The notes under the pieces: model-generated
The model's input: only the letters and a program-made list of their open reading frames with translations
Databases searched by the model: none
Told to the model about the DNA's origin: nothing
Program-made: the position numbers and the translations under genes
From: Opitutus sp. GAS368
GTDB taxonomy: Bacteria; Verrucomicrobiota; Verrucomicrobiia; Opitutales; Opitutaceae
Reading direction: 5' to 3'
Length of the DNA: 44,877 nucleotides
Assembly (NCBI GenBank): GCA_945869845.1
Contig: CAMBRG010000014.1
Location: 1 to 44,877, forward strand
Shown here: one piece after another, positions 315-44,176 of the stretch
Numbering within the stretch: the stretch's first letter is position 1
Layout of the letters: each line of letters opens with the position of its first letter

Positions 315-887
315 ATGACCGAGTCAGGCCACCGGCTCCCGCCCGTCGGAGCGACTGCCGGGGTAGGGCAGGGTCTTCGACCCGCCCCTCCGCGCCGCGC
401 CGGATTCACGCTGCTTGAGATTCTTCTCACGCTCGCGCTCATCGGCCTTTTGGCCGGCGCCCTGATCGGCGGTTCCTCCGCGTTGATTTCCGAGCGCGCC
501 CCCTCGGCCAACGATGTCTTTTGGTCGGCCGTGCGCACCGCCCGCAAGACGGCTCTGAATTCGCAGCGCGACATCGCGTTTCGTTTCGACGACAAGGCCA
601 AGGCGTTTGTGCTCACCTCGTTTGACGGGGTTGCGAGCCCCGTTCCCATCCCCGAAGCGCCGGCCGACCTAGGGGTTGATTTCCTTTCCACCCAACGCAC
701 GGGCGGTTTGATTTTGCTCGGTGGCAGCGTCGTCGAGACGGAGCCGCTGCCCGGCGGTGTCACGTTTTACTCCGACGGCACCTGCACGGGGTTTCGCCTG
801 CAAATCAGGCTCAACGGCGGCGCCAGCATCATCGCGATCGACCCTTGGACTTGCGCGCCCGTCATCCCGCGCGCCCCAAACCCGTGA
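315..887 (+). CDS. gspH: Type II secretion minor pseudopilin GspH-like
   Basis: A 190-residue prepilin-like protein. Residues 28-50 read RAG then FTLLEILLTLALIGLLAGAL: a class III signal with Gly at -1, Phe at +1 and Glu at +5, followed by the hydrophobic helix. Prepilin peptidase would cut after Gly30. GspH sits at or near the pseudopilus tip in the inner membrane and periplasm. It begins 3 bases after gspG and ends in a GTGA overlap with gspI. The 30-residue leader is long for this family, and no other start codon occurs in frame before the cleavage site. Nine leader codons (VGQGLRPAP) are exactly a copy of the REP palindrome found in gaps elsewhere in this window. GspH is assigned from operon position; the globular domain is too divergent to confirm by eye. 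Confidence 0.85.
   Translation: MTESGHRLPPVGATAGVGQGLRPAPPRRAGFTLLEILLTLALIGLLAGALIGGSSALISERAPSANDVFWSAVRTARKTALNSQRDIAFRFDDKAKAFVLTSFDGVASPVPIPEAPADLGVDFLSTQRTGGLILLGGSVVETEPLPGGVTFYSDGTCTGFRLQIRLNGGASIIAIDPWTCAPVIPRAPNP
363..388 (+). repeat. REP palindrome inside the gspH coding sequence
   Basis: GTAGGGCAGGGTCTTCGACC plus GCCCC is a copy of the 26-bp palindrome seen at 13570, 35275, 35354, 36087, 36313, 36959, 37039, 44105 and 44151. Here it is translated in frame as VGQGLRPAP in the prepilin leader. Confidence 0.85.
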
Positions 888-5213: not shown

Positions 5214-5293
5214 GTAAGGCTCGACCTCGGGTCGAGCCGTTCCGGGTGGCGGGCGCCGCAGAGGAAACGGCCTCACGCAAGGTGAGGCCCTAC
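5214..5293. repeat. REPIN-like element, copy 1 (80 bp)
   Basis: Two palindromes face each other: GCTCGACCTCGGGTCGAGC and GGCCTCACGCAAGGTGAGGCC, bounded by GTAAGG and CCCTAC and separated by about 35 bp. It is the inverted counterpart of the 80-bp unit at 10154-10233 and the 79-bp unit at 10267-10345. It lies in the gap between the T2SS operon and selO. Confidence 0.8.
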
Positions 5294-10153: not shown

Positions 10154-10233
10154 GTAGGGCCTCACCTTGCGTGAGGCCGTTTCGTCTTTGGCGCCCGACG
10201 CACGGAACGGCCCGACACGAGGTCGGGCCCTAC
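10154..10233. repeat. REPIN-like element, copy 2 (80 bp)
   Basis: GTAGGGCCTCACCTTGCGTG starts the unit and GAGGTCGGGCCCTAC ends it. Two GC-rich palindromes (GGCCTCACCTTGCGTGAGGCC and GGCCCGACACGAGGTCGGGCC-like) flank a variable core. It matches the reverse complement of 5214-5293 closely. Confidence 0.8.
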
Positions 10234-10266: not shown

Positions 10267-10345
10267 GTAGGGCCTCACCTCGCGTGAGGCCGTTCCCTCT
10301 GTGGCGCCCACCACTCTGAACGGCCCGACACGGGGTTGAGCCCAC
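10267..10345. repeat. REPIN-like element, copy 3 (79 bp)
   Basis: Direct copy of 10154-10233, 33 bases downstream of it. The first palindrome is intact (GTAGGGCCTCACCTCGCGTG), while the last one is degenerating (ACACGGGGTTGAGCCCAC). Confidence 0.75.
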
Positions 10346-13569: not shown

Positions 13570-13591
13570 AGGTCGGGTCGAAGACGCCGCC

Positions 13592-13595
<4 letters not shown>
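13570..13595. repeat. REP palindrome overlapping the U32 stop codon
   Basis: AGGTCGGGTCGAAGACGCCG plus CCCTAC is a diverged copy of the 26-bp REP. On the minus strand the gene ends AAG TAG GGC, with the TAG belonging to the REP. Confidence 0.7.
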
Positions 13596-32845: not shown

Positions 32846-35233
32846 ATGAACTCAAGAATCCCGTCCCTCCGGGGCGCTGCTTTAGCGCGCGCCCTGTTTG
32901 TCGTTTTGAGCGCGACTGCGCTGCGAGCGCAGACGCAAAGTGCCGCCGCGGCTCGTCCCGCCGGCGAAGAAGTAATCACGCTCTCTGAATTTCAGGTCTC
33001 GACGACCGCCGATAGAGGCTACCGGGCCGGCAATTCGGTCTCGGCGACCCGCATTAATACGCCGATCAAGGATCTGCCGTTTGCGATCAGTGCGTTTACC
33101 CAGCAGTTCATCACGGACATCGGGGCGCGGGATCTTTTCGATGTGGTGCAATATGCTCCCGGCGTGACGAGTGCAGGCCGCGAGTTCAACGCCGGCAACG
33201 CCGTCTATGCGATTCGTGGCTTCGACCAGACCCCGCAGCGCAACGGCTTTGTGGGCGAGGGCTACGTGGACACGGTCAGCATCGAGCGCGTCGAGGTGGT
33301 CAAGGGGCCGTCCTCGGTGCTGTATGGCCAGGTCGCTCCCGGCGGCACGGTGAATTACATCACGAAACGGCCCGGCACGAAGGCCTCGACCAAGGTCAAC
33401 GTGCAGGCCGGCACCGACAGTTTTTGGCGCACGTCGGTCGACGTGAATCAGCCGCTGGTGGGCGACAAAGTGCTCTTCCGTTTCAACGCCGCCTACGAAA
33501 ACGGCTTCGAATACATCAAACCCGGCGAGCAACGCACGGCGGTGTTCACTCCGGTCATCACCTGGCGCATCACCGACCGAATCGCGCTCACCGTGGACTA
33601 CAGTAATTTTTCTCGGCGCGAAACTCCACCTTCCGCGCAGATCAAGCCCAACATCCAAGTTGTGGGCGTGCGGCCGGCGAACGGAATTCTCAGTGCGACC
33701 GGTGTGCTGATCAACTCGCTCGACAACAGTGATCCCGGCTTCCTGACCTACTATCCGTTGCCCCGGGATTTCAATTATCTCTCAAACAACGACAATCGCT
33801 TCTCCGACTATGAATCGATCAATGCGGAGCTGACCGCGAAACTGACGGATCACTGGAGCGCCCGGGCCAACTTCAACTGGAATAAACGCCGCGTTGCCCA
33901 GAAGCTGACGGGTCTTGGCGGCGTGAGCATCACCGTGCCGACGAGCTACTATCCGGCCGGGGCCACGTTGCCGATCTCGGCGGCCAATTACCTCATCGGG
34001 GCGCGGGCTTACGCCGCGGACCTGCTGCAAAATCCGAATCTCGCGCTGCTGGCCCCCGAGGCTCAGCTCGGCCGCCGCAAGCGGCTCCAGGAAAATTTCG
34101 GCCAAGGCAAAGCCTCGCAGGTTGAGCTGGCCGGCGACTACACCTTGGGCGGCGTGAAGGTGAAGCCCCTTGTCGGCGCGCTCTACAACGAGTCGCGCGG
34201 TTACAGCCGGCTCCGGTCCAGCACGACGGCAAATTTCTTCCCCGTCTGGGATATGAAGAATCCTGCGACTTGGGATCGTAACACGGACTTCGACCCGGCG
34301 GCGCAGCCGTTGACGACGAACAACCGGGCCGTCACCCGCAACAGCGCCGGTTACGCGATCGTGAACACGAGTTTCTTTGAGGACCGTTTGAACGCCGTCG
34401 TCGGCGCCCGCTACAACAAATCCTCGGGCTCCACGGATAACTTCCTCAACCCGGCCGGCAGTCTCGCCAAGGTCGCGACGAAAAAGACCACGCCCCAAGT
34501 CGGGCTCGGCTGGAAGGCCACCCGCGACGTGATGGTTTACGGTTCCTACAGCCAATCCTATGTGCTGAACGCGGCCGCGCTCACCCAAGCGAGCGTGCCG
34601 ATCGGCCCGGCTTCGCCCACGACCTCGGAGGGCTACGAGCTCGGCGTGAAGACCGATTTCCTCAACGGCCGGATTTCGTCGACCGTCGCGGTTTTCCAGA
34701 TCGAGCAGAAGGACCGCATTCTGAATTTCAATTCGTTCAATGCCCTCGGCGTGACGGTGATCAACAGTCTTCAGGGCACGCTCGACCGCAGCCGCGGCAT
34801 CGAGGCCGAGGTCACTTGGTCCCCGATGGATAACTGGCAAGTATACGCCAGCGGCGCGATGAACGACATCCGCGTCACCCAAGTGCCGAAGGGCGTCGAG
34901 GTATTCCTTGGCGCGCATCCGGAGGCGACGGTCAAGGCGCTCTTCAACCTCTGGACGCGCTACTCATTCACCAGCGACGCACTCAAGGGCTGGTGGGTCG
35001 GCGGCGGCTTCAACCACACCGGCAAAAAGGCGCAGCGGACCAACAATCCGAAACTCTTCCTGCCGGCGGACACGCTTTGGAACTCGGCGGTCGGCTACGA
35101 TTGGAAGCAAAACGGCCGGCCGATGAACCTCGCCTTGAACTGGCAGAACATGGAGGACATCGAATACTTCCCGGCCAACCAGCAGCGCGGTCTGCCCGGC
35201 CGCGCCGTGCTCTCGCTGACGACGAAATTCTAA
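32846..35233 (+). CDS. TonB-dependent siderophore-type receptor
   Basis: A 795-residue outer-membrane receptor. The signal peptide is MNSRIPSLRGAALARALFVV; the TonB-box region is EVITLSEFQVSTTADRGY. The plug shows INTPIKDLPFAISAFTQQFI, QYAPGVTSAG, YAIRGFDQTPQRNGFVGEG and VEVVKGPSSVLYGQVAPGGTVNYIT, the pattern of TonB-siderophore receptors (FhuE/FpvA like). The barrel ends GLPGRAVLSLTTKF with a terminal Phe. ATG 32846 is used; an upstream GTG at 32819 lacks a signal. No iron-uptake ABC genes or regulator adjoin it, so the ligand is unknown. A REP hairpin with a T-run ends the transcript. Confidence 0.93.
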   Translation: MNSRIPSLRGAALARALFVVLSATALRAQTQSAAAARPAGEEVITLSEFQVSTTADRGYRAGNSVSATRINTPIKDLPFAISAFTQQFITDIGARDLFDVVQYAPGVTSAGREFNAGNAVYAIRGFDQTPQRNGFVGEGYVDTVSIERVEVVKGPSSVLYGQVAPGGTVNYITKRPGTKASTKVNVQAGTDSFWRTSVDVNQPLVGDKVLFRFNAAYENGFEYIKPGEQRTAVFTPVITWRITDRIALTVDYSNFSRRETPPSAQIKPNIQVVGVRPANGILSATGVLINSLDNSDPGFLTYYPLPRDFNYLSNNDNRFSDYESINAELTAKLTDHWSARANFNWNKRRVAQKLTGLGGVSITVPTSYYPAGATLPISAANYLIGARAYAADLLQNPNLALLAPEAQLGRRKRLQENFGQGKASQVELAGDYTLGGVKVKPLVGALYNESRGYSRLRSSTTANFFPVWDMKNPATWDRNTDFDPAAQPLTTNNRAVTRNSAGYAIVNTSFFEDRLNAVVGARYNKSSGSTDNFLNPAGSLAKVATKKTTPQVGLGWKATRDVMVYGSYSQSYVLNAAALTQASVPIGPASPTTSEGYELGVKTDFLNGRISSTVAVFQIEQKDRILNFNSFNALGVTVINSLQGTLDRSRGIEAEVTWSPMDNWQVYASGAMNDIRVTQVPKGVEVFLGAHPEATVKALFNLWTRYSFTSDALKGWWVGGGFNHTGKKAQRTNNPKLFLPADTLWNSAVGYDWKQNGRPMNLALNWQNMEDIEYFPANQQRGLPGRAVLSLTTKF

Positions 35234-35274
35234 AGTGGGCGAGACGGGCGACGGCCCCATCCGATAAGTTGCAA

Positions 35275-35306
35275 GGCGGGGCGGGTCTTTGACCCGCCCT
35301 TTTTTG
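35275..35306 (+). terminator. REP hairpin serving as terminator of the TonB receptor
   Basis: GGGCGGGTC and GACCCGCCC pair around TTT, followed by TTTTTT. The stem is a copy of the 26-bp REP (35275-35300), so a repeat has the form of a rho-independent terminator here. Confidence 0.8.
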
Positions 35307-35353
35307 GGTCTACGGGCGACGATATCCGGAGCCAATTGCGGGCGGCGCTGATG

Positions 35354-35379
35354 AGGGCGGGTCGGAGACCCTGCCCTAC
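35354..35379. repeat. REP palindrome upstream of msrB
   Basis: AGGGCGGGTCGGAGACCCTG then CCCTAC; inverted partner of the copy at 35275, about 53 bases apart, so the pair is REPIN-like. Confidence 0.85.
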
Positions 35380-35441
35380 TTTTCGATCGTGACGACCCGG
35401 CGCTGGAATATTTGCGGTTCGGTGCTACGCTCATCGGGACA

Positions 35442-36071
35442 ATGAAACTCTCACTCGCTCGATCGCTCGCTGCGGTGGCCGTTGCCACCAGTTTCTCTTA
35501 TGCCGCTATGAAAACCAATGCTGCCGAATCCACCGTGGTATCCGCCAAAGACGCCCTCGACTGCAAGCCGGGCGAAGTTTCGGCGTGCGGGTTGCCGTCC
35601 AACGTCGTCATCGACCTGAGCAAGGCGAAGGTGCAGCGCACCGATGCCGATTGGCGCGGTCGGCTCACGCCGATCCAGTTTCGGGTCGCGCGGCAGCAGG
35701 GCACCGAGCCGCCTTTCCAGAACGAGTATTGGAACCACCACGAGGACGGCGTCTATTTTTCCGTGTGCAGCGACACGCCGCTGTTTGATTCGAAGGACAA
35801 GTTCGACAGTGGGACGGGCTGGCCCAGTTTCACGAAGCCGATCGAGAAAGCGTTCGTCGGAGAGCATGTCGATACGAGCTACGGGATGCGGCGCGTCGAG
35901 GTCCACGTGACGGTAGACGGCGGGCATCTCGGCCATGTTTTTGAAGATGGTCCCCGCGCGAAAGGCGGCCTGCGTTACTGCATCAATAGCGCGTCGCTGC
36001 GGTTCGTCCCGCGCAAGGCTTATGAGGCGTGGGTGGCGAAGAATCAGGCGGGTGCGGTGGCCGCGAAGTAG
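35442..36071 (+). CDS. msrB: Peptide methionine-R-sulfoxide reductase, exported
   Basis: A 209-residue MsrB with an N-terminal signal-like segment ([21 protein letters not shown]), so the enzyme is probably periplasmic. The catalytic domain shows [46 protein letters not shown] and the nucleophile Cys in [15 protein letters not shown]. It reduces R-methionine sulfoxide in proteins. The two CxxC zinc pairs of many MsrBs are missing ([18 protein letters not shown]). ATG 35442 is preferred over an upstream in-frame codon at 35412 because the signal begins there. The last codons read AAG TAG GG, and a REP copy begins 16 bases after the stop. Confidence 0.92.
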
Positions 36072-36086
36072 GGGATGCGGCACGGA

Positions 36087-36112
36087 GTAGGGCAGGGTCT
36101 CTGACCCGCCCT
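36087..36112. repeat. REP palindrome, left end of RAYT element
   Basis: GTAGGGCAGGGTCTCTGACC followed by CGCCCT. This is the consensus form of the family and is paired with an inverted copy at 36313. Confidence 0.9.
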
Positions 36113-36312
36113 TTCACGCGTGGTGCGTTGCGCGGATGGCGTTGCGCGTGGTGCGTTGCGCGGAGGGCATGGTGCGTTGCGCGTGGTGCGTTGCGCGTGG
36201 TGCGTTGCGTGCTGTGCGTTGCGTGCTGTGCGTTGCGTGCTGTGCGAGGCGCGTGGTGCGCGTTGCGTGCTGCGCGTTGCGCGTGGTGCGTTGCGTGCTG
36301 CGCGTTGCGCGG
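36113..36312 (+). repeat. Degenerate GTGCGTTGCGCG tandem repeat
   Basis: About a dozen imperfect units of 13-17 bases built on TGGTGCGTTGCGCG, drifting to TGTGCGTTGCGTGC. It lies exactly between two inverted REP copies. It is open in several frames, as expected of a simple repeat, and is not taken as coding. Confidence 0.85.
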
Positions 36313-36338
36313 AGGGCGGGTCGGAGACCCTGCCCTAC
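36313..36338. repeat. REP palindrome carrying the RAYT stop codon
   Basis: AGGGCGGGTCGGAGACCCTG then CCCTAC. The RAYT gene (minus strand) ends AAG TAG GGC; its TAG is the GTAG of the repeat. Confidence 0.9.
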
Positions 36339-36937
36339 TTTGTCCAAGGGTGATCTTCCCAGTGTGCAGCGAGGCCGGCCTTGACCGGGTTGTTGCGAAT
36401 GTAGGCGACCGTTTTCTCCCACTCCGCGTCGTCGCGCATCCAGCGGTCGAACCACTCGCGTTGCCACACCGGCCCGGTGCCGCTCGTCTGTGTCGCGGCG
36501 CGGATCAGCCGGCCGGTGCGACCCTTGAGTCGCTTGATGATCTCATCGAGCGAGTGGGGGCAGTCAGGCGCGGGAGCGAGGAGCGCGTGCCAGTGATTCG
36601 GCATGATCGAGTAGTGCGGGACGGCGACGGACCAGTCCGTGAGCGCGCCGAGTTCGTCGATCATGATCTGGGCGCACGCCGGTTCGCGTACCCAGCACGC
36701 GCCCGTGCCCGCGTCGAGATACTTCTCCATCGTTGCGAAACACTGACGCTGGAGCGTCGCAAACTGATCGGAGACGGGATCTACGGCGGCGAGGGCGCGG
36801 TGGATTTCTTGCAGGCGGGCGACGATAGCCGCCGGCAGACTGTCGGCGAGGCGGACGGTGACGAAGTAACGGCCGCCTTTAACTTCCCAATGCGGGAGTT
36901 TCCCTCGGCGAAAACTCGTGGTCTCGACGAGGCGCAT
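36335..36937 (-). CDS. REP-associated tyrosine transposase (RAYT)
   Basis: A 200-residue Y1/IS200-like transposase. The opening SFRRGKLPHWEVKGGRYFVT is a common RAYT start. The HUH metal motif is HWH in SIMPNHWHALLAPAP, and the catalytic Tyr is in KTVAYIRNNPVKAGLAAHWE. VWQREWFDRWMRDDAEWEK is also diagnostic. RAYTs cut and join single-stranded DNA at REP hairpins, and REP copies sit on both sides of this gene. All catalytic parts appear present, so it may be active. ATG 36937 is the start. A long open frame on the opposite strand is a shadow. Adjacent genes (msrB and an oxidoreductase) are unrelated. Confidence 0.94.
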   Translation of the reverse strand: MRLVETTSFRRGKLPHWEVKGGRYFVTVRLADSLPAAIVARLQEIHRALAAVDPVSDQFATLQRQCFATMEKYLDAGTGACWVREPACAQIMIDELGALTDWSVAVPHYSIMPNHWHALLAPAPDCPHSLDEIIKRLKGRTGRLIRAATQTSGTGPVWQREWFDRWMRDDAEWEKTVAYIRNNPVKAGLAAHWEDHPWTK

Positions 36938-36958
36938 GGGACGGCCGAGGGATCGAAA

Positions 36959-36984
36959 ATAGAGCAGGGTCTCTGACCCGCCCT
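36959..36984. repeat. REP palindrome upstream of RAYT
   Basis: GAGCAGGGTCTCTGACCCGC then CCT, ending at 36984. It lies 21 bases before the RAYT start codon and differs slightly from the consensus at its left edge. Confidence 0.85.
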
Positions 36985-37038
36985 AGATTGTTTCCGGCGA
37001 TTGGGAGTGGCGGAGTTGGCTCGTAGGCCGGGTCGAAG

Positions 37039-37064
37039 AGGGCGGGTCGGAGACCCCGCCCCAC
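37039..37064. repeat. REP palindrome, right end of RAYT element
   Basis: AGGGCGGGTCGGAGACCCCG then CCCCAC; inverted partner of 36959-36984, about 54 bases away. Confidence 0.82.
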
Positions 37065-37070
37065 TCCGAA

Positions 37071-38240
37071 TCACAGCCTCGGAAACTTCACCCACTTCGC
37101 TCCGGCTTTGCCGGATTTTACGGCGGTCTCGATGAAGGCCATGCCCGCCAGGCCGTCGTTGATCGTCGGGAAATCGTAGCCGGTCTTCGGGGCTTTGCGG
37201 CCGGCGATGGAATCAGCGATGGCCACGGCGGCGCTGCGGTAAACGTTCGCAAAGGCCTCGATGAAGCCCTCGGGGTGCGCAAAGGGCGTGCGCGTCGCGC
37301 CCTGCGCAGCGGCCGAGACGTAGCTGTTGCCGCGACGATAAATCTGCTGGGGGGCGTCGGCTTTTTTCCAGATGAGCTCGTTGGGGTTTTCCTGGAACCA
37401 CTGGAGCGAGCCTTGGGTGCCGAAGACGCGGATGTTGAGGTTGTTTTCCTCGCCGCTCGAAATCTGCGAGGCGAAGAGGATGCCTTTCACGCCGCCGCTG
37501 AAGCGCACAAGGCAGTTGCCATCGTCATCAAGGAGGCGGCCGGGGATGAAGGTCGAGAGCTCGGCGCAGATCGACTCGACTTCGAGGCCGGTGATGTAGC
37601 GGGCGAGGTTGTGCGCGTGGGTGCCGATGTCGCCCATGCAATTGGAGACGCCGGAGACGTTGGGGTCCATGCGCCAGTTGGCGATTTTGCTCACGGTCTT
37701 GGCTTCAAGCGCGGTGATCGCGTAGCCCTGCGGATACTCGACGACGATCTTCATGAGCTGGCCGAGCTTACCGCTGCGGACCCACTCGCGGGCTTCCTTC
37801 ACCATCGGGTAACCGGTGTAGTTGTGCGTGAGGGCGAAAACTTTGCCGGTCTTCTTGACGACGTCGCGGAGCTTGCGGCCCTCGGCGAGGGTGAAGCAGA
37901 GGGGCTTGTCGCACACCACGTGGAAGCCGGCCTCGAGAAACGTTTTCGCGATGGGGGCGTGGGTGTTGTTGCGCGTGACGATGGAGACGAAGTCGATGCG
38001 CTGATCGGCGGGCAGGGCGGCTTCAGCCTGGGCCATTTCCTGGTAGGTCGCGTAAACGCGGCTGGGGTCGAGGAAGAGGTCCGCGCCGGAGGCTTTGGAT
38101 TTGGCGGGATCGGAGGAGAAGCAGCCGGCGACGAGATCGATCTCGCCGTCGAGCCGTGCGGCCATGCGGTGGACGGCGCCGATGAAGGCGCCACGCCCGC
38201 CGCCGATCATACCCATGCGGAGTTTACGGTTAAGTTTCAT
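37071..38240 (-). CDS. Gfo/Idh/MocA family oxidoreductase
   Basis: A 389-residue NAD(P)-dependent sugar or cyclitol dehydrogenase. The Rossmann site is RMGMIGGGRGAFIGAVHRMA; the conserved EKP-type motif appears as VVCDKPLCFTLAEG; ALTHNYTGYPMVKEAREWV and a catalytic-type GDIGTHAHNLARYI (His) follow. The C-terminal domain ends AGAKWVKFPRL. Such enzymes oxidise sugars or inositols, often at C3 or C2. It is on the same strand as the next three genes. ATG 38240 has no competing start. The substrate cannot be deduced, but the adjacent isomerases suggest sugar or inositol breakdown. Confidence 0.9.
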   Translation of the reverse strand: MKLNRKLRMGMIGGGRGAFIGAVHRMAARLDGEIDLVAGCFSSDPAKSKASGADLFLDPSRVYATYQEMAQAEAALPADQRIDFVSIVTRNNTHAPIAKTFLEAGFHVVCDKPLCFTLAEGRKLRDVVKKTGKVFALTHNYTGYPMVKEAREWVRSGKLGQLMKIVVEYPQGYAITALEAKTVSKIANWRMDPNVSGVSNCMGDIGTHAHNLARYITGLEVESICAELSTFIPGRLLDDDGNCLVRFSGGVKGILFASQISSGEENNLNIRVFGTQGSLQWFQENPNELIWKKADAPQQIYRRGNSYVSAAAQGATRTPFAHPEGFIEAFANVYRSAAVAIADSIAGRKAPKTGYDFPTINDGLAGMAFIETAVKSGKAGAKWVKFPRL

Positions 38241-38325: not shown

Positions 38326-38928
38326 CTATTCGTCAGGGTAGGTCTCGTCGTAGATGTCGCTCACCCTTTTGCCGTTAAACGTCCAATGTGGGCCGGGCTG
38401 AACGCTGTAGTCTAACTGAAGCATGAGACGCGTTGCTGCGGTCAAGGTCAGCTCTTGATCTCGATACTTCACTTTCTTGGGCGCAATTACAGTTGCGGTT
38501 GAGTCGTCGTCGAATGACTGCAAGACGGAACCGACGGGAATTCCCATCTCATCAAAATTCAGGTTCGGCCGACGCGAGCGAAGCGACTCTGCTGCTTGCG
38601 CGGATTCTGGGTCGACCTGAGAATTCTCTTGTTTCACTTCATCGGTCGCATCTTCCGAATGCAGGAGTTTCAAGATCGCGATCGCTTGTTCTGGTTCGAT
38701 TCGAAAAAACTCGCGCTTGGGATTGATCCGCTGCGGGCCGAACGCGATGTGAAGAGCTTTTTCGACTTCGAGTTCGTCGCCCACTCTGCAAGCGAACTCG
38801 ATTTTAAACGGCACTGGCACACCTGTGGTGTAAAGCTGCAGGATTCTGTCGTTAGCGTCGCCGAGAGACGTCTTTCCAATTTTGACGAGTCCCGGCATCG
38901 CCGGATTTGTGAGGACGTAAACAATCAT
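38326..38928 (-). CDS. GIY-YIG (T5orf172-type) nuclease-like protein
   Basis: A 200-residue protein. The N-terminal region MIVYVLTNPAMPGLVKIGKT then ALHIAFGPQRINPKREFFRI is a T5orf172 / GIY-YIG domain (YVLTN and VKIGKT replace the usual GIY and YIG). The acidic linker EVKQENSQVDPESAQ is followed by a C-terminal module (TVIAPKKVKYRDQELTLTAA, WTFNGKRVSDIYDETY) resembling the RAMA/DUF4357 domain of restriction and mobile-element proteins. ATG 38928 is preferred over TTG 38940. Its base composition seems lower in G+C than its neighbours. It sits inside an otherwise sugar-related minus-strand run, so it may be a recent insertion. Function not known. Confidence 0.78.
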   Translation of the reverse strand: MIVYVLTNPAMPGLVKIGKTSLGDANDRILQLYTTGVPVPFKIEFACRVGDELEVEKALHIAFGPQRINPKREFFRIEPEQAIAILKLLHSEDATDEVKQENSQVDPESAQAAESLRSRRPNLNFDEMGIPVGSVLQSFDDDSTATVIAPKKVKYRDQELTLTAATRLMLQLDYSVQPGPHWTFNGKRVSDIYDETYPDE

Positions 38929-38967
38929 GAAGATGACCAACTGCCGTGCTCTGTTTTCCGCTTAATC

Positions 38968-40085: not shown

Positions 40086-40164
40086 TGGCCCACGGAACAC
40101 ACGGAATACACGGAAATAAAACGGGCTCCAATTCTTCCGGGTATTCCGTGTGTTCCGTGGGCCA
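40086..40164. repeat. Perfect 23-bp inverted repeat
   Basis: Arms 40086-40108 (starting TGGCCCACGGAACACACGG) and 40142-40164 (ending GTGTTCCGTGGGCCA) are exact complements. The 33-base loop has a partial repeat of the same CACGGAA unit. It lies between two sugar genes; no T-run follows on the minus strand, so it is not a clear terminator. Confidence 0.9.
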
Positions 40165-43241: not shown

Positions 43242-44108
43242 ATGCCCAATCCCTGGACCGGAAAAGGAAACCCTTACACGCGCGAGGAAGTGCGCGAACG
43301 CCTCCGCGCCACGCTCGCCAAAGGTGACGCCATTATCGCTGCCGGTGCCGGGACCGGCATCAGCGCCAAATTCATCGAGAAAGGCGGAGCCGATCTAATT
43401 ATCATCTATAACAGCGGCCGTTTTCGGATGATGGGCCACGGTTCAACGGCCGGGATGATGGCCTACGGCGACGCCAACGCGATTGCCATGGAGATCGGCG
43501 AATACGAGGTACTGCCCGTGGTCGAGGAGTGTCCCGTCATTTGCGGCGTTCACGCCACCGATCCGCGTCGCCGCATGTGGCACTGGCTCGGCCAGGTCAA
43601 AGAAATGGGTTTCTCCGGCGTGAATAATTTTCCCACGCACACCATCGTCGACGGCCATTTCCGCGGCGTGCTCGAAGAGACCGGCATGAGCGTGAAAAAA
43701 GAATACGAGATGATCGCCCTCGCTCGGCGGATGGACTTGTTCTCGGTCGTTTACGTGGGCTCGCCCGAGGAAGCCATCGAGATGGCCAAGGCCGGGGCGG
43801 ATGCGATTATCGCGCACGTCGGCACCACCGTTGGCGGGAGCATCGGCGTGAAAAACGCCCTCGTGAGTTGGGATCACACGATCAAGACCACCCAGGACAT
43901 CATCGACGCCGCCTCCACGATTCGGAAGGACATCTTCTTCCTTTGTCACGGCGGCCCGATCAATACGCCCGAAGACGCCGCCCGCGTCATGGCCGCGACC
44001 GCTTGCGACGGCTTCGTCGGCGCGAGTAGCCTTGAACGCATGGGCGTCGAGGAGTCGCTCACCAATCTCACGCGCAAATTCAAAGCCCTGAAACGCAGCC
44101 CGAAGTAG
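43242..44108 (+). CDS. PEP-hydrolase-family TIM-barrel protein
   Basis: A 288-residue protein of the phosphoenolpyruvate hydrolase family (PF09370, once called a TIM-barrel signal-transduction domain). Characteristic pieces: PWTGKGNPYTREEVRERLRA, IAAGAGTGISAKFIEKGGAD, IYNSGRFRMMGHGSTAGMMA, VVEECPVICGVHATDPRRRM, GVNNFPTHTIVDGHFRGVLE, SWDHTIKTTQDII and FFLCHGGPINTPEDAARVMA. Members often pair with a Tm-1-like partner; none is seen here. The frame is open upstream to 43038, but ATG 43242 begins the domain. The TAG stop is part of a REP palindrome. A cupin gene follows. Confidence 0.9.
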   Translation: MPNPWTGKGNPYTREEVRERLRATLAKGDAIIAAGAGTGISAKFIEKGGADLIIIYNSGRFRMMGHGSTAGMMAYGDANAIAMEIGEYEVLPVVEECPVICGVHATDPRRRMWHWLGQVKEMGFSGVNNFPTHTIVDGHFRGVLEETGMSVKKEYEMIALARRMDLFSVVYVGSPEEAIEMAKAGADAIIAHVGTTVGGSIGVKNALVSWDHTIKTTQDIIDAASTIRKDIFFLCHGGPINTPEDAARVMAATACDGFVGASSLERMGVEESLTNLTRKFKALKRSPK

Positions 44109-44176
44109 GGCAGGGTCTCCGACCCGCCCTCCGCGCCCCTCGATCAGCCCAGGGCGGGTCAAAGACGCCGCCCTAC
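44105..44176. repeat. REP pair between the PEP-hydrolase and cupin genes
   Basis: REP 44105-44130 (GTAGGGCAGGGTCTCCGACC then CGCCCT) and its inverted copy 44151-44176 make a 72-bp REPIN-like unit. The first copy contributes the TAG at 44106 to the upstream gene. Confidence 0.88.

What the first reader, a model, noticed from the sequence alone, without database searches (positions are those of the whole stretch)
36087..37064. RAYT transposase framed by four copies of the window-wide REP
The RAYT at 36335-36937 keeps its HWH and YIRNNP motifs and is bracketed by pairs of inverted 26-bp palindromes (36087, 36313, 36959, 37039). Six more copies of the same palindrome lie elsewhere in 45 kb (363, 13570, 35275, 35354, 44105, 44151). 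Physical linkage of a RAYT to its own REP family is known in gammaproteobacteria; here the sequence shows a matching system in a probable Opitutaceae genome, with some copies inside or at the edges of genes.
Basis: partly seen in the sequence, partly recalled or inferred. Interest (0 to 1): 0.8.

Follow-up and report, generated by a model that had tools for sequence, protein, structure and literature searches.

The report
Transposase gene with its matched hairpins
A domesticated transposase gene in an Opitutaceae-like bacterium sits between copies of a short DNA hairpin that is scattered about a hundred times over the genome; it is a clear new example of a known kind of gene-and-repeat partnership, with useful detail on how the two change together and how the gene may get lost.

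Summary
In detail: ten copies of a GTAG-tagged hairpin lie in the window, four bracketing a RAYT gene (36335-36937, minus). The held genome (3.62 Mb, 83% complete) has 101 copies with up to 3 mismatches, 0 for the reversed control. Among 100 listed copies all 15 close pairs point GTAG outward: these are REPINs. The protein just reaches NCBI's RAYT cut-off, and its predicted fold is best matched by E. coli RAYT bound to a REP hairpin.
Across relatives REP tag and loop largely follow the RAYT tree, and the class beside a RAYT is usually repeated in its genome.
Likely reason: loss. The RAYT occupies the same locus in two named MAGs and in another genus, while G150 has one REPIN there, with the breakpoint at the REP. 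The direction is inferred.
RAYT-REP pairs and REP-rich Opitutus terrae are published (PMC3733652). New member of a known kind. Transposition is not shown.

The parts
36335..36937 (-). RAYT (REP-associated tyrosine transposase, HUH/Y1 family), 200 aa; stop codon TAG supplied by the REP at 36314-36338
   Evidence: (PDB 4er8, E 0.0052)
36087..36111 (+). REP copy, exact; left arm of the REPIN on the msrB side of the RAYT
36314..36338 (-). REP copy, exact; right arm of that REPIN, overlaps the RAYT stop codon
36115..36310 (.). roughly 14-bp tandem repeat (TGCGTTGCGCGTGG-like) filling the spacer of the 252-bp REPIN 36087-36338
   Evidence: the related genome G150 has a 52-bp spacer there
36959..36983 (+). 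REP copy, two mismatches (ATAG tag); 21 bp upstream of the RAYT start codon; left arm of the 106-bp REPIN
37040..37064 (-). REP copy, one mismatch (GTGG tag); right arm of the REPIN 36959-37064; direct repeat of 36314-36338
35275..35379 (.). REPIN (105 bp); its left arm has no GTAG tag and looks like a terminator (10-pair stem followed by a T-run) after the TonB-receptor gene; shared with G150; in G062 only the right arm is recognised
44105..44176 (.). REPIN (72 bp); its first GTAG gives the stop codon of the PEP-hydrolase-like gene; shared with G150 and G062
363..387 (+). single REP, exact, inside the leader of the prepilin-like ORF 315-887
13571..13595 (-). single degenerate REP; its GTAG gives the stop codon of the U32 peptidase gene
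35412..36071 (+). msrB-like gene (SelR domain), neighbour of the RAYT locus; also beside the RAYT in L072 and L042/L073
37071..38240 (-). Gfo/Idh/MocA oxidoreductase gene, neighbour of the RAYT locus; also beside the RAYT in L071, L072 and L042/L073

Best explanation
This is a resident RAYT with its own GTAG REP/REPIN family. The protein is an HUH nuclease with one catalytic tyrosine (Y179). By homology it binds the REP hairpin in single-stranded DNA, reads the GTAG at its foot, cuts next to the hairpin (the CT that follows the stem, in 33 of 43 copies, is my candidate) and rarely copies or moves REP pairs, so a population of about 100 REPs is kept up in the genome. The RAYT itself is not multiplying: it is one copy, at a locus (msrB to Gfo/Idh) shared with two named MAGs and a genome of another genus, under purifying selection. 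It can be lost: in the related genome G150 the locus holds one REPIN with the breakpoint at the REP, as expected if the two direct-repeat REPs (36314 and 37040) recombined. After loss the REPs persist for a time. Shown: anatomy, enrichment, orientation, co-variation of REP and RAYT, shared locus, REP-bounded difference at the locus. Inferred: binding, cleavage, REP mobilisation, direction of the event (loss).
For: RAYT family match; fold: 4er8, RAYT bound to a REP hairpin, is the top hit, E 8.4e-9, TM 0.50/0.59, and the only PDB sequence match up to E 0.01, at 0.0052. 101 genomic sites, 0 control; 15 of 15 close pairs GTAG-outward. GTAG intact in 83 of 100 listed copies, C25-T26 in 33 of 43. 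On a RAYT tree of 28 rows the four labels (three REP classes and 'none') need 5 changes, shuffled mean 15.3, 0 of 200 shuffles as low; the GTCTNNGAC-loop REPs are one side of a branch (93/86) and the GTGG REPs another (96/96). The REP class beside the RAYT has many copies in G028 (29), G116 (177), G063 (231) and G127 (85), while G000 has 3 and 0 for those two patterns. Same locus in L071, L072 and L042/L073; G000, L071, L072 and L042 are one fork at 97/92. dN/dS 0.10-0.22 among the four RAYTs of that locus where it could be computed (4 of 6 pairs). G150 breakpoint at the REP.
Against: No clean REP insertion was found: where both flanks could be matched, most REPs of G000, G150 and G062 sit at shared sites, so mobility is not seen. 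In the sample of 150 genomes, REP1-like counts with up to 3 mismatches do not track the close RAYT: G059 has 75, G062 72 and G026 40 without one, while of seven others with a RAYT 50% or more identical only G031 has many (40); G116 has 6, G028 and G016 3 each, G139, G074 and G106 none. Related REP types also pass that pattern (G092, G030). The GCTTYAGC loop class is not one clade (4 changes). In G139 the REPs beside the RAYT (CGCGGGTC stem) differ from the 12 of 48 genomic copies that are listed (CGCCGGTC). Synonymous divergence of the RAYT exceeds that of its neighbours (dS 1.20 against 0.42 for Idh, G000-L071), which could mean replacement rather than plain descent at that locus. 13 of 36 distinct RAYT relatives show, on my reading, no clear tagged hairpin within 350 bp.
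Confidence: 0.85

Rival explanations
1. The hairpins are ordinary terminator or 3'-end RNA structures kept for gene expression; the RAYT next to four of them is a bystander.
For: The REP tag ends an open frame of at least 100 codons in 15 of 37 copies examined (those with an intact GTAG and at least 600 bases of held sequence before them), against 200 of 1735 other TAG triplets. The copy at 35275 looks like a terminator, stem plus T-run. REPs in the literature are often downstream of genes and plausibly transcribed (PMC3733652, abstract).
Against: Terminators need no GTAG tag, no fixed GTAG-outward pairing (15 of 15) and no change of tag and loop along a transposase tree. Base 27 is C or G in 28 of 43 copies, so most are not followed at once by a T-run.
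Confidence: 0.06
2. The RAYT with its flanking REPs is an autonomous insertion sequence of the IS200/IS605 kind that arrived recently in the G000 lineage and inserted at a REPIN; the single REPIN of G150 is the original state.
For: G150 (92-95% identical in nucleotides on the two flanks) has one REPIN and no RAYT there; RAYT synonymous divergence is higher than that of its neighbours; the 12 other held genomes of the genus have no close RAYT.
Against: The RAYT is at the same msrB-Idh place, same orientation, in L072 and L042/L073, and beside Idh in L071, which form one fork with it. It is single copy in G000 and scores 20.3 bits against a cut-off of 55 for NCBIfam IS200. Of 72,556 plasmids only 3 have any match, at 25-32% identity.
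Confidence: 0.1
3. REP1 is moved by another RAYT of the same genome; the window's RAYT is inert.
For: G000 has three more RAYT-like genes, and REP1 stays abundant where RAYT1 is missing.
Against: RAYT2 (C44) and RAYT3 (C77) are flanked by repeats of different sequence, and REP2 has 59 copies of its own. RAYT1 keeps its motifs and low dN/dS. GTAG is intact in 80 of 93 copies in G000 (counted by hand) but 39 of 55 in G062 (p 0.03); G150, 53 of 68, does not differ from G000 (p 0.21).
Confidence: 0.05

Closest known systems
REPtrons: tnpA-REP (RAYT) plus cognate GTAG REPs, as in E. coli, Stenotrophomonas and Marinomonas (PMC8266576; abstract and sections 3, 24, 28, 29 read)
   Same: Single HUH/Y1 protein, GTAG-tagged hairpins beside the gene and across the genome, inverted pairs, a CT dinucleotide next to the hairpin, REP and RAYT changing together.
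   Different: Opitutaceae-like host; stem and loop sequence of its own; no biochemistry. Bulged and perfect hairpins occur inside one RAYT clade here, whereas that paper contrasts a bulged-REP group (2) with a perfect-REP group (3).
GTAG REP families of Opitutus terrae and others (PMC3733652; abstract, sections 5 and 16 and passages read)
   Same: GTAG tag, head-head dimers, TAG stop codons supplied by REPs, REPs inside genes, several REP families in one genome, a related bacterium.
   Different: The consensus sequences are in a figure that is not held, so I could not tell whether this REP equals one of the O. terrae families.
REPINs (PMC3116915, search listing only; PMC8049555, passages read)
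   Same: Inverted REP pairs as the likely mobile, non-autonomous unit, with a single-copy, vertically inherited RAYT.
   Different: No REPIN copying seen here; absence of the RAYT with persisting REPs is documented at one locus.
RAYT subclasses 2.4 and 2.7 (PMC6006769; passages read)
   Same: WQ and YIxNNP / YI[LR][NQ]NP motifs, about 200 aa, GTAG REPs with long stems.
   Different: HUH motif is NHWH, not listed for either; the HUH-to-Y distance (about 64) lacks the longer spacing given for 2.4 (median 88).

Membership tests
RAYT / TnpA-REP | HUH motif, W and catalytic Y in a Y1 transposase domain | tested here: met
   NHWH 114-117, WQ 158-159, YIRNNP 179-184; Pfam PF01797. In the alignment of 10 sequences N114-H117, W158-Q159 and N183-P184 are invariant and Y179 nearly so (L075 has C there)
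RAYT / TnpA-REP | Score above the curated RAYT model cut-off | tested here: met
   NF047646, 80 bits, exactly at the cut-off of 80; borderline
RAYT / TnpA-REP | Gene flanked by REPs whose family is scattered in the genome | tested here: met
RAYT / TnpA-REP | Single copy, inherited like a host gene | tested here: met
   one copy in G000; same locus in L071, L072 and L042/L073; the raised dS of the RAYT is a reservation
RAYT / TnpA-REP | Binds and cuts single-stranded cognate REP | not testable with these tools
   needs purified protein
GTAG REP / REPIN | GTAG at the foot of a short hairpin | tested here: met
   the final G of the tag pairs with base 25 in the exact copies
GTAG REP / REPIN | High copy number, above chance | tested here: met
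   101 against 0 control
GTAG REP / REPIN | Inverted pairs as the repeated unit | tested here: met
   15 of 15 close pairs +-; but only 30 of 100 listed copies are in such pairs
GTAG REP / REPIN | Mobile (presence/absence between relatives) | tested here: inconclusive
   no clean insertion among the sites comparable
IS200/IS605 insertion sequence | Several near-identical copies moving as a unit | tested here: not met
   the next matches in G000 are 31-35% identical over part of the protein
RAYT subclass 2.4 (Bertels group 4) | NH[IFV]H, WQ, YIxNNP and a variable insertion between HUH and Y | tested here: not met
   W and Y motifs met; NHWH and a spacing of about 64 do not fit

The most novel reading that the evidence does not exclude
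At one conserved locus a single RAYT lineage has passed between perfect-hairpin REPs (beside the G028 RAYT, 29 copies in its genome) and REPs with a one-base bulge (the common form in G000; bulged and perfect mixed beside the RAYTs of L071 and L072), and neighbouring RAYT clades carry another loop class. If RAYT recognition follows, bulged and perfect REPs are not two separate evolutionary groups but states that one RAYT can pass between, and these Opitutaceae pairs would give a natural series for reading the RAYT-REP recognition code residue by residue.
Probability: 0.3. Interest if true: 0.5.

Novelty: new member of a known kind. Interest (0 to 1): 0.35.

Why it matters
RAYTs are called the first described domesticated bacterial transposases (PMC8266576), yet why hosts keep them is unknown. 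This family of related pairs outside the proteobacteria gives (i) a test set in which hairpin sequence and protein changed together, (ii) a close pair of genomes that differ by a REP-bounded RAYT segment, and (iii) genomes where the REPs seem to outlive the RAYT, so the decay of REPs without it can be measured. The system as such is not new.

Tried and rejected
REP decay after RAYT loss as a strong claim: exact matches to my pattern fall from 49 of 93 (G000) to 19 of 55 (G062) and 17 of 68 (G150) (p 0.04 and 0.0006), but the pattern was built from G000 copies, so this is biased. G152 has only 5 exact of 85 yet is uniform around its own consensus (42 of 85 identical) and has the most intact GTAG tags (83 of 85). 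I keep only the GTAG-integrity comparison, as a hint.

G152 as a RAYT-less genome: not used as evidence of loss, because its contig with msrB stops inside the second REP of this locus, where an assembly would be likely to break.

Mobility from empty sites: two candidate differences (L151 4793-5002 against G000; L142 404-487 against G062) turned out to hold other repeats at the same place, not clean empty sites. Two more (L039 with L156; L038 with L158) were ambiguous and not followed. The prepilin leader also differs between G000 and G062 by more than a REP.

RNA families: none up to E 1 in 34900-37300. Defence models: none for the RAYT. Sigma-70-like promoters: none found in 35200-37150. Subclass assignment of the RAYT: left open.

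Selection in my tree: 28 of 59 RAYT loci on hand were used. Five rows without a clear REP stayed in the tree under the label 'none', so the clustering test leans towards loci that have REPs. The REP label of each row was chosen by me.

Full report
What is there. The window holds a 200-aa RAYT gene at 36335-36937 on the minus strand and ten copies of one 25-nt repeat. The consensus is GTAG followed by a hairpin, GGCAGGGTC-TNN-GACCCGCCC, with one unpaired base (position 8 in the common form) on the 5' arm. Folded as single-stranded DNA, the five exact copies of the ten give this bulged hairpin at -8.8 kcal/mol, with the last G of the tag pairing with base 25; the copy at 35275 folds into a perfect hairpin. 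In 43 copies read from held sequence, AA precedes the tag in most (A at -2 in 33, A at -1 in 30) and CT follows the stem in 33.

More than chance. The whole held genome (3.62 Mb, 219 contigs, 83% complete) has 101 sites with up to 3 mismatches and none for the reversed control. Of the 100 sites listed, 24 are one identical 25-mer and 83 keep GTAG. 15 pairs lie closer than 320 bp (about 0.9 expected), all 15 with GTAG outward, spacers 20-56 bp but for one of 202 bp; 70 listed copies are not in such pairs.

Position and genes. The RAYT lies between two REPINs, 36087-36338 and 36959-37064, in the gap between an msrB-like gene and a Gfo/Idh/MocA oxidoreductase gene. REPs often supply the stop codon: in 15 of 37 copies examined the TAG of the tag ends an open frame of at least 100 codons, against 200 of 1735 other TAG triplets in the same sequences; the RAYT's own stop is one. 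One copy, 363-387, is translated inside the leader of a prepilin-like ORF with no start codon after it in frame before the GFTLLE motif.

The protein. It matches Pfam Y1_Tnp and reaches NCBI's RAYT cut-off exactly. The predicted structure (mean pLDDT 84.7, 10 sequences) has E. coli RAYT bound to a REP hairpin, 4er8, as best PDB match (E 8.4e-9, TM 0.50 by query length, rmsd 10.2 A), followed by ISDra2 and IS608 transposases. dN/dS among the four RAYTs of the shared locus is 0.10-0.22 in the 4 of 6 pairs where dS was finite.

Do REP and RAYT belong together? In a sample of 150 genomes of the family, own included, 105 have some RAYT match at E 1e-3. Looking within 350 bp of the RAYT in 36 distinct relatives, 23 have tagged hairpins and 13 have, on my reading, no clear one. 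On a tree of 28 RAYTs (23 with an assigned REP), tag and loop class largely follow the branches: 5 changes in all against a shuffled mean of 15.3; the GTCTNNGAC and GTGG classes are each one side of a branch, the GCTTYAGC class is not (4 changes). Searching 15 chosen genomes for two of these classes, the class beside the RAYT is repeated in its own genome in most cases (first class: G028 29, G116 177, G139 48, G074 9, G016 20; second class: G063 231, G127 85, G031 29, G111 12, G146 11, G106 6), while the window's genome has 3 and 0. Against: G116 is rich in both classes (177 and 106); G139's neighbouring REPs are not the type in the 12 of its 48 copies that are listed; and counts of the window's own REP over the family do not track the close RAYT: G059 75, G062 72 and G026 40 without one, but G116 6, G028 and G016 3 each, G139, G074 and G106 0 with one; G031 (58% identity) has 40.

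In the genus (13 held genomes) only G000 has the close RAYT, yet copies with up to 2 mismatches number 93 in G000, 85 in G152, 68 in G150, 55 in G062, 11 in G126, 4 in G109, 2 in G018 and 0 in six. Read literally this counts against a dependence on the RAYT, although only G150 of the three REP-rich others has no RAYT match at all, and its assembly is 68% complete. The locus itself suggests a reason. The RAYT lies at this msrB/Idh place in L072 and in L042/L073 (another genus), and beside Idh in L071, and these RAYTs form one fork with G000's (97/92). In G150, 92-95% identical on the two flanks, the gap holds a single REPIN: its left part matches the left REPIN of G000, its right flank matches that of the right REPIN, and the two BLAST matches meet, with a 6-base overlap, at the start of the second REP. 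That is what recombination between the direct repeats 36314-36338 and 37040-37064 would leave. G062 has another gene (a GIY-YIG-like ORF, recognised from recalled motifs) and other repeats there; G018, G154 and G088 have gaps of about 80 bp with neither. Loss of REPtrons by deletion in E. coli strains is mentioned in PMC3733652, and loss is discussed in PMC6006769. A reservation: the RAYT's synonymous divergence from L071 and L072 (dS 1.20 and 2.11) is above that of its neighbours (Idh 0.42 and 0.69; msrB 1.09 and TonB 1.18 for L072), so replacement at the locus is possible, and the direction of the G000-G150 difference is inferred.

Does the REP move? Not shown. Where both flanks could be matched in held stretches, the G000 clusters at 35275 and 44105 of the window and two on C4 are also in G150; 44105, one on C10 and one on C11 are also in G062, and the right arm of 35275 is. 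Of the differences, two were looked at and are other repeats in the same place; two more were ambiguous. This agrees with the very low rates in PMC8049555 (passages).

Other pairs in the same genome. RAYT2 (contig C44, L010) has REP2, GTAGRACCGACCGNTGGTCGGTY, on both sides, with 59 copies in G000, 12 in G062, 13 in G150, 19 in G126, 18 in G109, 4 in G152 and 1 in G018. RAYT3 (C77, L011) lies between GTGGGAGCGAGCTTGCTCGCGA repeats. RAYT4 (C25, L009) has no clear tagged hairpin. One genome thus seems to hold three RAYT-REP pairs, as reported for other species with several REP families.

What is known. RAYT-REP linkage, head-head dimers, stop codons from REPs, intragenic REPs and the richness of Opitutus terrae are in PMC3733652; REP recognition by GTAG and by bulge or loop is in PMC8266576. 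My searches for Verrucomicrobi- with 'REP-associated tyrosine transposase' (1 paper, PMC3733652), Opitut- with 'repetitive extragenic palindromic' (0 papers), RAYT with REPIN (18 papers) and REPtron (4 papers) listed no paper whose title or abstract is about this system in this family; only open-licence papers are held. I file it as a new member of a known kind. The least expected point is that perfect and bulged REPs occur within one RAYT clade at one locus.

Noticed in passing
window 5214-5293, 10154-10233, 10267-10343; also L146 7301-7496 and L003 1779-1940: A different GTAG dimer family in the same genome: GTAGGGCCTCACCTTGCGTGAGGCC paired with GTAGGGCCCGACCTCGTGTCGGGCC in inverted orientation. 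I did not search for its RAYT.
   Followed up: partly
L010 (own genome, contig C44): Second RAYT with its own REP (GTAGRACCGACCGNTGGTCGGTY), 59 copies in the genome with up to 2 mismatches, often paired with a GTAGGCCCGACC variant.
   Followed up: yes
L011 121-142 and 697-718 (contig C77); L147 17208-17265; L149 7420-7496: Third RAYT-like gene flanked by GTGGGAGCGAGCTTGCTCGCGA repeats, which look like Pseudomonas REPs (recalled).
   Followed up: partly
L132 about 2000-2770 (G062, same locus as the RAYT): In place of the RAYT, G062 carries a GIY-YIG-like ORF (recalled motifs) among TCATTGCGAGGAG repeats; the same gap holds different mobile-looking pieces in different species.
   Followed up: partly
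window 363-387 in ORF 315-887: A REP is translated within the leader of a prepilin-like protein; in G062 the same leader holds a different, also palindromic, stretch.
   Followed up: partly
window 36115-36310: About 14-bp tandem repeats expand the spacer of one REPIN to 202 bp; the other 14 close pairs have spacers of 20-56 bp.
   Followed up: no
window 40086-40164: Near-perfect 30-bp inverted repeat (97%) with 19 bp between the arms, which contain CACGGAATACACGGAA.
   Followed up: no
window 38326-38940: MUG113/T5orf172 ORF (relation to GIY-YIG recalled), the second gene upstream of the RAYT.
   Followed up: no
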